From positions 868,001 to 932,000 of the forward strand of contig NZ_RAPV01000001.1 of assembly GCF_003610295.1 (NCBI RefSeq): a DNA stretch of 64,000 nt, in the 5' to 3' direction. The position numbers and the translations under genes were made by a program. Shown piece by piece: positions 255-10,130 of this stretch (position 1 is its first letter; every line of letters begins with the position of its first letter). The stretch is from Paraburkholderia sp. BL23I1N1 (lineage in GTDB: Bacteria; Pseudomonadota; Gammaproteobacteria; Burkholderiales; Burkholderiaceae). The notes beneath the pieces are model-generated. The model was not told the DNA's origin. It did not search any database and saw only the letters and a list, made by a program, of their open reading frames with translations.

Positions 255-1895
255 TCATTCCTGCAAAGGCTCGTCGGCGGCTAACGATTCAAGCGACGCT
301 TTCTCGTCGGCGGCGCTCGGATCCCGCAAGCCGTGGTGTCCCAGCAGCCGGTATAGCGTCACCCGCGAGATATTCAGATCGATCGCCGCCTCGTTCAGGC
401 GGTGGCGATGCCGCAGCAGCGCCGCTTCGATCGTGCGCTTCTCAGCGGCTTCGCGCGCCTGCGAGAGCGTCATGGTCTGCTGCTCGGTGAACTGCGTGAG
501 GTCGAGGTCGTCGGCGGAAATCAGCTTGTTTTCCGCCATCACGATCGCGCGGCGCACCCGGTTGATCAGTTCGCGCACATTGCCGGGCCAGTTGTAGTTG
601 TACATGGCCTCGATCGCCGACGGCGCAAAGCCGCGGATCTTTCGCGCGCTGTCGGTCTTGAACTTGTGCATGATGTGATGCGCCAGAATCTCGATGTCCT
701 TGCCGCGGGCACGTAGTGGTGGCTCGTCGACGCGCAGCACGCACAGGCGATGGAACAGGTCGGCGCGGAACCGTCCGTCGCGCATCGCGACCTCGAGATC
801 CACGTGGGTCGCCGAAATGATTCGCACGTCCACCTGGATCGATTCGCGGCCGCCGAGCCGTTCGATCTTGCCTTCCTGCAAAAAGCGCAGCAGACTGGCC
901 TGACTTTCCATCGGCAGGTCGCCGATTTCGTCGAGCAGCAAGGTGCCTCCGTCCGCGGCCTCGACCCGGCCGATCTTGCGCTGGTTCGCGCCGGTGAACG
1001 CGCCGCGTTCATAGCCAAATAGTTCGGACTGCAACAGATGGTGCGGAATCGCGCCGCAGTTGATGGCGACGAACGGCGCCTTGCGGCGCGGCGAGCGCTC
1101 GTGGATCGCCAGCGCGGTGAGTTCCTTGCCGGTGCCGGATTCACCCGAGATAAATACGCTGGCATCGGTATTGGCGATTTTGCGGATGGTGCGAAAGAGT
1201 TGCTGCATTGCTTCGCAAGTCCCGACCATTTCGTCTTCGTCGTCGTCGGCGGCGGGCGTGGCCGGCGCGACATCGTCGGCATCGCACAATGTCACCATAC
1301 CGAATGCGTGACAGGCGAGGTAGTCGATCGTGGCGTGGGCCACCGGCGTCTTGACGTAGTCGAAGCAGTAGTGGCGGATCAGGCGCCGCACGCCGGGGTC
1401 GGCGAGGCGTTCCGAGGTGGCGAGCGCAATCCAGCCGATCTGCTGTTGACGCAGGCTCGCTTCGAGGCCGCCAAGGTCGCGCAACGCAAAGCTGGCCAGG
1501 TCGACAATGCCGGCGCATACCACGTCAGGCTTGAGCAGGCGCGCGACCTCATGCGCCGAGCGGGCCGCCATCACGTGCCAGCCGCGGCTCTTCAGATGGG
1601 CGATCAGCGTTTCGTCCGGCGTGCGCGCGACGTACAGCAGCACCCGTTCGGTCTGCGTGTGCGGCAGACCGGTCTCCTTCGCGGCGGCGGCAGAAGGCTC
1701 GTGCAAGCGCCCCAAAGTGGCTTCCTGAGGGTGCGCCAAAGAGACTTCCGACGGACACCCCCGAGGACTTCCGTTGCTCGTTTCACAGGAACCTCCTGCG
1801 CCCGGGCAATCGACAGATGAGCGCCGGAGGGCGGTGTAACGCTGCTCAGATGGGGCGATTCGCGCACGATCAACCTCGTATCGTTGGCACGTCAA
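255..1895 (-). CDS. Sigma-54-dependent activator (VpsR-like, Fis-type HTH), last gene of the Fap-like operon
   Basis: Predicted enhancer-binding ATPase that opens sigma-54 promoters. The order is a degenerate receiver-like N-terminal domain, an AAA+ domain with Walker A GESGTGKE, an intact sigma-54 contact loop GAFTGA, Walker B GGTLLLDEIGD and the WPGNVREL motif, then a C-terminal Fis-type helix-turn-helix (NISRVTLYRLL). It is strongly similar over its whole length to the activator at 8736-10130. The start is uncertain. The longest frame begins with a TTG (1895-1893) that overlaps the stop of the upstream FapF-like gene as TTGA. The first 80 or so codons do not match the paralogue and look non-coding, so the real start is probably between about 1740 and 1640 (TTG or GTG codons). 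Being last in the operon suggests feedback control of the locus. Confidence 0.85.
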   Translation of the reverse strand: MTCQRYEVDRARIAPSEQRYTALRRSSVDCPGAGGSCETSNGSPRGCPSEVSLAHPQEATLGRLHEPSAAAAKETGLPHTQTERVLLYVARTPDETLIAHLKSRGWHVMAARSAHEVARLLKPDVVCAGIVDLASFALRDLGGLEASLRQQQIGWIALATSERLADPGVRRLIRHYCFDYVKTPVAHATIDYLACHAFGMVTLCDADDVAPATPAADDDEDEMVGTCEAMQQLFRTIRKIANTDASVFISGESGTGKELTALAIHERSPRRKAPFVAINCGAIPHHLLQSELFGYERGAFTGANQRKIGRVEAADGGTLLLDEIGDLPMESQASLLRFLQEGKIERLGGRESIQVDVRIISATHVDLEVAMRDGRFRADLFHRLCVLRVDEPPLRARGKDIEILAHHIMHKFKTDSARKIRGFAPSAIEAMYNYNWPGNVRELINRVRRAIVMAENKLISADDLDLTQFTEQQTMTLSQAREAAEKRTIEAALLRHRHRLNEAAIDLNISRVTLYRLLGHHGLRDPSAADEKASLESLAADEPLQE

Positions 1896-8735: not shown

Positions 8736-10130
8736 ATGGAACCCGCAACGCGGCAACTGATTTACGTTTCACGCGATCCGAGCGCGGAACTGAATACACG
8801 CTTCCTTCAACGCGGCTGGCATGTCGAAGTCGTGGGGTCGGCGCGCGACGTACGCCGTGCTGTTCGCGCCGGAATGGCAGCGGGTGGCTTGCTCGATCTG
8901 TCTAGCGAATTTCAGCCACACGAAATCGCCGCTTTTGAGTCCTGTCTGACCATTCCGAACGTTGGCTGGGTCGCAGCCACCACGTCTGGACAATTGCAGG
9001 ACGCGGCCTTGCGCCGGCTCGTACGGGACTATTGCTTCGACTATGTAACCGTGCCCTATTCGGGCGATAGGATCGTCGATTCGGTTGGGCACGCCTACGG
9101 CATGATCTCGCTCGGCGAGCCGGCGTCGAACGACGGGTCGCAAGGCGCGGAAGGCGAAATGGTCGGTTCGTGCGACGCGATGCTCGCGCTGTTCCGTTCG
9201 ATTCGCAAAGTGGCGATGACCGACGCGCCGGTGTTTATTTCGGGCGAATCGGGCACGGGCAAGGAGTTGACCGCGGTCGCGATCCACGAACGCTCGGCGC
9301 GCCGCAATGCGCCTTTTGTGCCGATCAACTGCGGCGCGATCCCGCCGCATCTATTGCAATCCGAATTATTCGGCTATGAGCGCGGTGCGTTCACGGGCGC
9401 CAATCAGCGCAAGATTGGCCGCGTGGAAGCGGCCAACGGCGGCACGCTGTTCCTCGACGAAATCGGCGATCTGCCGCTCGAAAGCCAGGCGAGCCTGCTG
9501 CGCTTCCTGCAGGAGCGCAAAGTAGAGCGGCTGGGCGGCCACGGTTCGATCGACGTCGACGTGCGCATCATTTCGGCCACTCACGTGGATATGACCGCGG
9601 CGATGATCGAGGGACGGTTCCGCTCCGACCTGTATCACCGCTTGTGCGTGCTGCAAATCGACGAACCGCCGCTGCGCGCACGTGGTAAGGATATCGAACT
9701 GCTTGCGCGGCACATGCTGGAACGTTTCAGGAAAGATGCAAGCCGCCGTTTGCGCGGCTTCGCACCCGACGCCATCGCGGCGCTGCATAACTACGGCTGG
9801 CCGGGCAACGTGCGCGAGTTGATCAATCGCGTGCGGCGCGCCATCGTGATGTCGGAAGGGCGCGCGATCACGGCGCGCGATCTCGAGTTAGCTGAATACG
9901 TGGAAATCGTGCCCGTGTCGCTCGCGCAGGCGCGCGAAGCGGCTGAACGTCAGGCGATCGAGCTCGCGCTTCTGCGTCATCGTGGCCGTCTCGGCGACGC
10001 CGCGCACGAACTCGGTATTTCGCGCGTGACGCTGTACCGGCTGCTGTGCTCACACGGCATGCGCCATATGGAAGGCGAACCGCTAGCCACGCCGCACGGC
10101 GAGCTGCCAGCCTCGGTGCCGCATCTTTGA
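8736..10130 (+). CDS. Sigma-54-dependent activator (VpsR-like), divergent from the Fap-like operon
   Basis: 464 aa, paralogue of the activator that ends the operon. A receiver-like N-terminal domain (about 1-125), probably not a normal phosphorelay receiver, precedes the AAA+ domain: Walker A GESGTGKE (170-177), GAFTGA (217-222), Walker B GGTLFLDEIGD (235-245) and WPGNVREL. A Fis-type HTH (about 418-441, ELGISRVTLYRLL) ends the protein before a short tail. The intact GAFTGA predicts true sigma-54 activation, and the -24/-12 promoter 500 bp away is the obvious target. The ATG is preceded by GAGAGGATCTGAATA. Its start aligns with about residue 82 of the longest frame of the paralogue, which is why that frame is thought too long. 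Confidence 0.9.
   Translation: MEPATRQLIYVSRDPSAELNTRFLQRGWHVEVVGSARDVRRAVRAGMAAGGLLDLSSEFQPHEIAAFESCLTIPNVGWVAATTSGQLQDAALRRLVRDYCFDYVTVPYSGDRIVDSVGHAYGMISLGEPASNDGSQGAEGEMVGSCDAMLALFRSIRKVAMTDAPVFISGESGTGKELTAVAIHERSARRNAPFVPINCGAIPPHLLQSELFGYERGAFTGANQRKIGRVEAANGGTLFLDEIGDLPLESQASLLRFLQERKVERLGGHGSIDVDVRIISATHVDMTAAMIEGRFRSDLYHRLCVLQIDEPPLRARGKDIELLARHMLERFRKDASRRLRGFAPDAIAALHNYGWPGNVRELINRVRRAIVMSEGRAITARDLELAEYVEIVPVSLAQAREAAERQAIELALLRHRGRLGDAAHELGISRVTLYRLLCSHGMRHMEGEPLATPHGELPASVPHL

What the first reader, a model, noticed from the sequence alone, without database searches (positions are those of the whole stretch)
255..10130. Fap-type functional-amyloid locus in a Burkholderia-like genome, bracketed by two sigma-54 activators
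Seen: a minus-strand run of secreted proteins with Asn/Gln repeat subunits, a C39-like peptidase and a coiled-coil/beta-barrel protein, in fapA-F order. Known: Pseudomonas fap operons have this order, and Fap loci have been described outside Pseudomonas. Inference: this locus builds a surface amyloid under RpoN control. The extra first gene, the atypical large subunit and the paired activators are not part of the Pseudomonas operon I know.
Basis: partly seen in the sequence, partly recalled or inferred. Interest (0 to 1): 0.8.

Follow-up and report, generated by a model that had tools for sequence, protein, structure and literature searches.

The report
Fap amyloid operon plus extra peptide
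This is a Paraburkholderia gene cluster for building sticky amyloid fibres, related to the known Pseudomonas one but with a conserved extra protein whose likely cutting signal matches one in a known fibre protein and so suggests what the system's protease cuts; in this genome one needed gene reads as broken.

Summary
FapF matches the solved FapF barrel (E 4e-80), FapD keeps the C39 catalytic residues, and the order is R1<- X-A-B-C-D-E-F-R2, found in 76 of 80 named loci (4 cut by contig ends). Fap in Burkholderia, and a sigma-54/c-di-GMP activator of fap (BrfA), are already in print. Not found in print: (1) the first gene, X, found only within the family in the genomes sampled, is a conserved secreted protein with a double-glycine leader-type motif (LDDQxLSxQRGG); FapE carries a matching motif in 94 of 96 cases examined. 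Both are therefore candidate substrates of FapD, whose target is described as unclear. In 28 loci without fapD nearby X persists, but 1 keeps the motif. (2) A -24/-12 promoter (8227-8242) and an enhancer-like palindrome (8318-8333), 75 bp apart, conserved in 71 of 76 loci. (3) R1 and R2 look like duplicates, within Burkholderiaceae, of one fap activator. (4) fapE is frameshifted in this genome but one open frame in 31 of 32 relatives; if real, this strain probably secretes no FapC. Cleavage, and any role of X, are untested.

The parts
8736..10130 (+). R1: sigma-54 enhancer-binding protein (VpsR domain, AAA+ with GAFTGA, Fis HTH), divergent from the operon
   Evidence: Pfam PF00158 5e-68, PF20161 VpsR 2e-19, HTH_8 4e-9; GAFTGA read in the translation; R1 clade in tree
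8318..8333 (.). enhancer-like palindrome GTTTCA-N4-TGAAAC, 75 bp upstream of the promoter
   Evidence: 1 match in window, 0.01 expected; exact in 69 of 76 named loci, 0 of 360 control regions
8227..8242 (-). sigma-54 type -24/-12 promoter (GG-N10-GC) upstream of X
   Evidence: 1 match in window, 0.03 expected; best palindrome followed after 74-75 bp by such a site in 71 of 76 loci
7648..8199 (-). X: extra first gene, 183 aa; signal-peptide-like start, variable low-complexity spacer, double-glycine-type motif, conserved 56-aa C-terminal part (VTLWDEIAPP)
   Evidence: no significant Pfam/NCBIfam match; 39 invariant columns in 11 orthologues
7819..7854 (-). X residues 116-127, motif LDDQALSRQRGG (putative FapD recognition and cleavage site)
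   Evidence: motif in 76 of 76 X, 0 of 903 other ORFs; position
7095..7583 (-). fapA (periplasmic chaperone of Fap subunits)
   Evidence: NF058617 E 8e-12, below cut-off
6448..7098 (-). fapB (minor subunit / nucleator, three N/Q repeats)
   Evidence: NF058557 E 6e-20, below cut-off; repeats read in translation
5018..6418 (-). fapC (major subunit; long N-terminal region, three repeats in the C-terminal half)
   Evidence: NF058558 E 2e-13, below cut-off; repeats conserved in 9 aligned orthologues
4233..4943 (-). fapD (Sec-type signal, C39 cysteine peptidase; Q59, C65, H149, D165)
   Evidence: NF058616 E 2e-59, below cut-off; PF03412 2e-22; catalytic residues in 85 of 85 aligned FapD and FapD-like proteins
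3427..4226 (-). fapE, interrupted: frame changes between about codons 62 and 66
   Evidence: two frames in own genome; single open frame in 31 of 32 relative loci
4062..4097 (-). fapE residues 44-55, motif VDDAVLANQTGK, upstream of the break
   Evidence: D46 and G54 (numbering of L031 FapE) invariant in 14 FapE
1892..3325 (-). fapF (outer-membrane beta-barrel secretion pore with N-terminal coiled coil)
   Evidence: NF058560 E 2e-102, below cut-off; PDB 5o65 E 4e-80 over residues 178-477
255..1895 (-). R2: second sigma-54 enhancer-binding protein downstream of fapF; ORF called from TTG, the part shared with R1 starts near residue 83
   Evidence: PF00158 4e-69, VpsR 1e-24; R2 clade in tree

Best explanation
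A Fap functional-amyloid secretion and assembly locus in the Burkholderiaceae form. RpoN with the BrfA-type activators R1/R2 switches on one promoter in front of X-fapABCDEF, binding the palindrome 75 bp upstream, probably when c-di-GMP is high (inferred from BrfA and BerB). All proteins leave by Sec. In the periplasm FapA keeps FapB and FapC unfolded, and FapD, a stand-alone C39 peptidase, recognises a double-glycine-type leader helix (L/I/V-x-D/E-x-x-L/M-x-x-x-R/T-G-x) in two clients, FapE and the extra protein X, and cuts after it. Cut FapE licenses FapF to export FapB, FapC and FapE, which form the fibre; cut X releases a conserved ~56-residue C-terminal peptide that acts with the fibre or at the envelope. 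Shown: homology, gene order, conserved promoter and palindrome, shared motif, absence of the motif from X where fapD is absent. Inferred: activator binding, cleavage, the role of X, c-di-GMP. In the window's own strain fapE reads as frameshifted, so here the pathway may be stalled.
For: Fap identity. Nine genes in one order in 76 of 80 named loci, 4 cut by contig ends. Motif in the first 200 residues: X 76/76, FapE 76/77 (L137 is cut by its contig end), FapA 2/76, B/C/D/F/R1/R2 none, other ORFs 0/903. FapE of other systems 12/12 with a slightly wider pattern, 6 of 7 further Burkholderiaceae loci, the seventh, L194, differing only at the first position. X against FapE by hhalign aligns only 25 columns around the motif (P 0.0036). 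AlphaFold of an intact FapE puts a short helix (46-53) on the motif just before a beta domain. X in loci without fapD keeps the motif in 1 of 28, a decaying fap locus, against 80 of 80 first-gene X in fap-positive loci (76; 4 with the wider pattern, one having H for R). FapD catalytic residues 85/85. Literature: FapD Cys needed for secretion, FapE the only Fap protein with complete N-terminal processing, target unclear (PMC5557850 passages). Promoter and palindrome.
Against: The motif in FapE ends GK or GR, not GG/GA/GS as canonical C39 sites do, and PMC5557850 states that Fap proteins lack canonical C39 sequences. The UK4 mass spectrometry lacked FapE peptides over ~70 residues, more than cleavage at the motif alone explains (in Pseudomonas-type FapE it begins at precursor residue 29); the same paper and a 2025 review also name FapF as a possible target, and FapF has no such motif (0 of 80). 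The pattern was written after seeing the sequences; the 903 background ORFs and the loci are related, not independent, and the loci without fapD are mostly one genus (g162). hhalign probability for X vs FapE is only 9%; the AlphaFold helix has pLDDT below 50. Second X-like genes beside fap lack the motif in L190 and L191 and have a degenerate one in L192. X is not needed for Fap: of 80 FapF-positive genomes in the family sample 27 have no X match (17 of them in g5, where X is diverged), and L194-L196 have fap without X. fapE is broken in this genome.
Confidence: 0.66

Rival explanations
1. The shared motif is a docking or targeting helix (for FapD as chaperone, or for the FapF coiled coil), not a cleavage site. 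Its absence where fapD is gone then reflects loss of a binding partner.
For: The last position is G, K, R or T, unlike canonical C39 sites; degenerate C39-like domains that cannot cut exist, and the domain is needed for substrate interaction either way (PMC10986499 passages).
Against: FapD has all catalytic residues (85/85), its Cys is needed for secretion in Pseudomonas, and FapE loses its N-terminus there (PMC5557850 passages).
Confidence: 0.25
2. In this particular strain the locus is a decaying or silent Fap operon: fapE is a pseudogene and no fibres are made.
For: fapE in two frames in the own genome, no second copy found; mutation of fapE is said to abolish Fap secretion (PMC5557850 passage). 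Decay happens elsewhere: L061 partly deleted, L053 with fapC in two frames, 28 examined loci with X but without fapD.
Against: The other eight genes are open. Against the nearest relative, of 25 ORFs with a match in the window 20 match full-length in one frame, 4 differ only at an end, and one antisense ORF shows frame changes, at the fapE break and in the noncoding gap beside it. One shift could be recent or an assembly error.
Confidence: 0.45
3. The fapE frameshift is a sequencing or assembly error and the locus is fully functional.
For: It is the only frame change inside a gene among 25 compared ORFs, and fapE is intact in the closest relative.
Against: The assembly has 4 contigs, completeness 100 and contamination 0.82, so it is a good one; reads are not available here.
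Confidence: 0.45
4. X is a diverged duplicate of FapE without a role of its own; the motif is inherited from FapE.
For: The leader motif is the only part that aligns; both look secreted and lie in the operon.
Against: The C-terminal part of X has its own invariant residues (VTLWDEIAPP) unlike FapE, and X persists with its activator, palindrome and promoter where fapD is gone.
Confidence: 0.15

Closest known systems
Pseudomonas fapABCDEF functional amyloid (Dueholm 2013; Rouse 2017)
   Same: Six fap genes in order, FapF barrel, C39 FapD, three-repeat FapB/FapC, a sigma-54 activator next to the operon.
   Different: Extra first gene X, two activators instead of one, scores below the NCBI equivalog cut-offs, fapE interrupted in this strain.
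Burkholderia Fap operons of the 2013 survey (PMC3792158)
   Same: Same kind of locus; [quoted passage not shown]
   Different: The text I read (parts 1-2 of 5) speaks of fapABCDEF only; X, the shared motif and the activators do not appear there.
BrfA of P. fluorescens PF07 (c-di-GMP-sensing RpoN activator of fapA)
   Same: Gene next to fap, sigma-54 activator, -24/-12 fapA promoter (passages).
   Different: Here two copies, R1 divergent in front and R2 behind, which the tree places as a duplication within Burkholderiaceae; c-di-GMP binding not tested.
BerB of B. cenocepacia (RpoN and c-di-GMP, Bep exopolysaccharide)
   Same: RpoN-dependent activator of a biofilm matrix locus (passages).
   Different: Located beside bep and berA, not fap, and described as lacking an N-terminal input domain; orthology not tested.
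C39 peptidase plus double-glycine leader substrates of peptidase-containing ABC transporters
   Same: Catalytic domain and leader-type motif.
   Different: FapD is a stand-alone periplasmic enzyme; the clients carry a Sec-type signal first and the leader second; the last motif residue is often K or R.
Second FapF/FapD-like systems in other genomes of the genus (L063-L070; Fil-like)
   Same: C39 gene near a FapF/FilC-like barrel; in 3 of the 8 fetched loci a neighbouring secreted protein has an RLDxxRGG or QLDxxRGG-type motif.
   Different: About 30-35% identity in FapF and FapD, no second FapF match in this genome.

Membership tests
Fap functional-amyloid system (as surveyed by Dueholm et al. 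2013) | fapABCDEF gene order in one operon | tested here: met
   fapE present but interrupted in the window; co-transcription itself not tested
Fap functional-amyloid system (as surveyed by Dueholm et al. 2013) | FapF beta-barrel pore | tested here: met
   PDB FapF 5o65 E 4e-80 over residues 178-477
Fap functional-amyloid system (as surveyed by Dueholm et al. 2013) | C39 peptidase FapD with catalytic residues | tested here: met
Fap functional-amyloid system (as surveyed by Dueholm et al. 2013) | FapB and FapC with three imperfect N/Q repeats | tested here: met
   repeats read by eye in the translations and, for FapC, in the alignment
Fap functional-amyloid system (as surveyed by Dueholm et al. 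2013) | intact FapE | tested here: not met
   interrupted in the window's genome. FapE identity from relatives: NF058559 2e-9 in L051, 2e-6 in L059, no match in L031 and L040. Filed as a broken copy of the kind, which is intact in 31 of 32 relative loci
Fap functional-amyloid system (as surveyed by Dueholm et al. 2013) | amyloid fibres made | not testable with these tools
   needs Congo red/ThT and formic-acid-resistant fibre proteomics; AlphaFold of FapC failed (mean pLDDT 31)
NCBIfam Fap equivalogs (NF058617, NF058557, NF058558, NF058616, NF058560) | score above curated equivalog cut-off | tested here: not met
   45.7/110, 71.7/190, 50.8/195, 200.6/330, 343.1/700 bits: homologous, not those equivalogs
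BrfA-type sigma-54 activator | sigma-54 AAA+ with GAFTGA, Fis HTH, adjacency to fap | tested here: met
   GAFTGA in R1 and R2 translations; in one tree with activators beside other fap loci. BrfA's own sequence was not compared by name
BrfA-type sigma-54 activator | binds c-di-GMP and the fap enhancer | not testable with these tools
   needs binding assays; a conserved palindrome is a candidate site
Double-glycine (C39) leader substrate: X and FapE | leader motif with hydrophobic -12 and -7 and Gly at -2 | tested here: met
   the consensus itself is recalled
Double-glycine (C39) leader substrate: X and FapE | small residue (G/A/S) at -1 | tested here: inconclusive
   G in most X, but R or T in Burkholderia and most Trinickia X, and K in FapE (R or K in other systems)
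Double-glycine (C39) leader substrate: X and FapE | cleavage after the motif by its C39 peptidase | not testable with these tools
   needs in vitro cleavage or N-terminal mass spectrometry

The most novel reading that the evidence does not exclude
FapD works in a periplasmic, Sec-dependent double-glycine pathway: proteins first cross the inner membrane by Sec, then have a leader-type helix removed by a free C39 peptidase. FapE is its general client, and in Burkholderiaceae the extra protein X is a second client that releases a conserved 56-residue VTLWDEIAPP peptide. The R1-palindrome-promoter-X unit outlives the fap genes in relatives that lack fapD, so this peptide has a function of its own at the cell envelope under (probably c-di-GMP-sensing) RpoN control.
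Probability: 0.4. Interest if true: 0.78.

Novelty: new variant of a known kind. Interest (0 to 1): 0.58.

Why it matters
What FapD cuts is stated as unclear (2017 paper) or thought to be FapE and FapF (2025 review). A motif shared by FapE of distant Fap systems and by a new operon member gives an exact predicted site to test, plus a natural control (the motif is missing from X where fapD is missing). If true it adds a Sec-then-C39 maturation route to amyloid secretion, a new conserved component of Burkholderiaceae fap loci, and a candidate fap enhancer site that can be tested for activator binding.

Tried and rejected
A strain-specific oddity: rejected, the nine-gene set is conserved through Paraburkholderia, Trinickia and some Burkholderia. 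X as a known family: no significant Pfam or NCBIfam match (only chance-level NCBIfam matches at E 0.12 and 4.5); names in the 120 listed of 582 protein matches are mostly 'hypothetical protein', with stray labels such as RodZ and PRC-barrel. X outside the family: in the class sample 1 of 274 genomes, the own genome. AlphaFold of FapC failed (pLDDT 31); Foldseek of the FapE model found nothing at E <= 0.001. No Rfam match at window 1-14000. A promoter score alone was not specific (102 of 360 control regions reached score 12), so the paired palindrome-promoter test was used. In one search the pattern for the named loci was wrong (0 of 76); it was corrected, and one search repeated the test with the same pattern for loci and controls, with the same counts.
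Full report
WHAT IS THERE. On the minus strand, in transcription order: X (8199-7648), fapA (7583-7095), fapB (7098-6448), fapC (6418-5018), fapD (4943-4233), fapE (4226-3427, interrupted), fapF (3325-1892), R2 (ending at 255); R1 (8736-10130) is divergent. NCBIfam gives FapA 8e-12, FapB 6e-20, FapC 2e-13, FapD 2e-59 and FapF 2e-102, all below the curated cut-offs; the two fapE pieces match no Fap family. FapF matches crystal FapF 5o65 at 4e-80. FapD matches C39 domains including PCAT1 4ry2; its Q59, C65, H149 and D165 are invariant in 85 of 85 aligned proteins (76 named loci, the window, 6 other Fap loci and 2 second systems). 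FapB and FapC each show three repeats, counted by eye. R1 and R2 carry VpsR, sigma-54 AAA+ and Fis-type domains. The genome has 9.1 Mb in 4 contigs; the nearest named loci are Paraburkholderia with FapF up to 98% identical.

HOW COMMON. FapF has a match in 66 of 77 genomes of the genus (the count includes partial hits, and many genomes also have a second, 30-35% identical copy). From named genomes the best 80 of 95 loci were kept. All nine genes, in one order by their 3' ends, are in 76 of 80; the other four are cut by contig ends. In the family sample FapF is in 80 of 249 genomes (E <= 1e-60) and X in 86 of 249. By my count of the two lists, 53 genomes have both, 33 have X without strong FapF, and 27 have FapF without an X match; 17 of these 27 are in one genus (g5) where X is diverged and found in other members. 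In the class sample X is in 1 of 274, the own genome.

fapE IS BROKEN HERE. The own genome has one fapE, found in two frames, residues 1-65 and 64-266 of the relative's protein. In 31 of 32 relative loci (L031-L062) it is one open frame; L061 has a partial deletion. Against the nearest relative, 25 of its 26 kept ORFs match the window: 20 full-length in one frame, 4 differ only at an end, and one, an antisense ORF over fapE, shows frame changes at the fapE break and in the noncoding gap beside it. Mutation of fapE is said to abolish Fap secretion in Pseudomonas (PMC5557850, passage). Mutation and assembly error cannot be told apart here. FapE of relatives scores with NF058559 in 2 of 4 scanned.

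THE EXTRA GENE AND THE SHARED MOTIF. X (183 aa) has a signal-peptide-like start, a variable spacer, then LDDQALSRQRGG and a 56-residue tail with VTLWDEIAPP; 39 columns are invariant in 11 orthologues, 34 of them in the motif and tail. FapE has VDDxVLAxQTGK at the matching place, and FapE of other Fap systems has forms such as LKDAEMAELRGR and LSDSELGQQRGR. The pattern [LIV]x[DE]xx[LM]xxx[RTS]G[GKRTS] in the first 200 residues is in 76 of 76 X, 76 of 77 FapE (L137, cut by its contig end, lacks it), 2 of 76 FapA, none of the other Fap or regulator proteins, 0 of 903 other ORFs of the same loci and 1 of 903 shuffled ones. Of FapE from other systems, 12 of 12, from 11 fetched loci (11 of the 13 genomes with a FapE match), carry it if H is also allowed before the G. 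Of seven further Burkholderiaceae FapE six carry it and L194 differs at the first position only. Together 94 of 96. A profile comparison of X and FapE aligns just 25 columns around this stretch (P 0.0036, but probability 9%). The pattern was written after seeing the sequences and the loci are related, so the counts are descriptive. The likeness to double-glycine leaders (hydrophobic -12 and -7, Gly -2) rests on a recalled consensus. AlphaFold of an intact FapE shows a short helix at 46-53 followed by a beta domain from 60 (mean pLDDT 66, below 50 in the helix region).

A NATURAL TEST. Of the 33 genomes with X but no strong FapF I examined 28 loci (8, 20). No fapD match lies in the 8-14 kb fetched around any of them. 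X keeps the motif in 1 (L208, with remnants of fapF, fapC and fapA) and nearly so in L205; in the other 26 it is gone while the VTLWDE-type tail stays. All 28 have a regulator of the R1/R2 type beside X. In 26 the exact palindrome is present with a GG-N10-GC 50-90 bp downstream (the hit in L217 is probably on the wrong strand). In fap-positive loci the first-gene X has the motif in 76 of 76 and in 4 of 4 loci of other genera (L190-L193, wider pattern; L193 has H for R). Most of the 28 are one genus (g162), the rest from g1, g3 and g166, so this is a few independent losses, not 26. Against: a second X-like gene next to fap in L190 and L191 lacks the motif and in L192 has a degenerate one.

REGULATION. 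The window has one TGGCAY-N4-TTCGCT (8227-8242, 0.03 expected) and one GTTTCA-N4-TGAAAC (8318-8333, 0.01 expected). In 69 of 76 named loci the palindrome is exact, and in 71 of 76 the best palindrome is followed after 74-75 bp by a -24/-12 site; 0 of 360 control regions show either. A tree puts R1 and R2 as sister groups within Burkholderiaceae, with the single activators of other fap loci outside (FastTree, midpoint root; support 1.0 and 0.93). In P. fluorescens PF07 the fapA promoter is RpoN-dependent and BrfA, next to fap, activates it (PMC9207406, passages) while sensing c-di-GMP (PMC13101488, passages; the 2024 BrfA paper was seen only as a reference). BerB is a like case (PMC5552954, passages).

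WHAT IS KNOWN. Fap operons in Burkholderia: PMC3792158 (parts 1-2 of 5 read) and PMC6173800 (passages). FapD target unclear: PMC5557850 (passages). [quoted passage not shown] I saw no paper on X or on this motif in the listings of searches (open-access PMC subset only; listings and the passages named, not whole papers).

VERDICT. A Fap locus, already known as a kind; a new variant by its conserved extra component, duplicated activators and the shared leader-type motif. Activator binding, cleavage and the function of X remain predictions.

Noticed in passing
L063-L070: Many genomes of the genus hold a second FapF/FilC-like barrel with a C39 gene (about 30-35% identical); in 3 of the 8 fetched loci a neighbouring secreted protein carries an RLDxxRGG or QLDxxRGG-type motif. 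The window's genome has no second FapF match.
   Followed up: partly
L190-L192: A second X-like gene, convergent downstream of fapF, without the motif (L190, L191) or with a degenerate one (L192).
   Followed up: partly
L197-L224: A regulator of the R1/R2 type and X, mostly with palindrome and promoter, persist in genomes that lack strong FapF, suggesting a Fap-independent role of X.
   Followed up: partly
window 11410-13878: A long secreted-looking protein with a proline/glutamine-rich C-terminal tail on the minus strand, next to a thymidylate synthase-like gene (10259-11284; name recalled from its sequence, not searched).
   Followed up: no
window 28740-28953: Two tandem tRNA-Asn genes.
   Followed up: no
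L053, L061: Other relatives also show damage in the locus: fapC in two frames in L053; in L061 no fapB or fapD match and fapF split.
   Followed up: no
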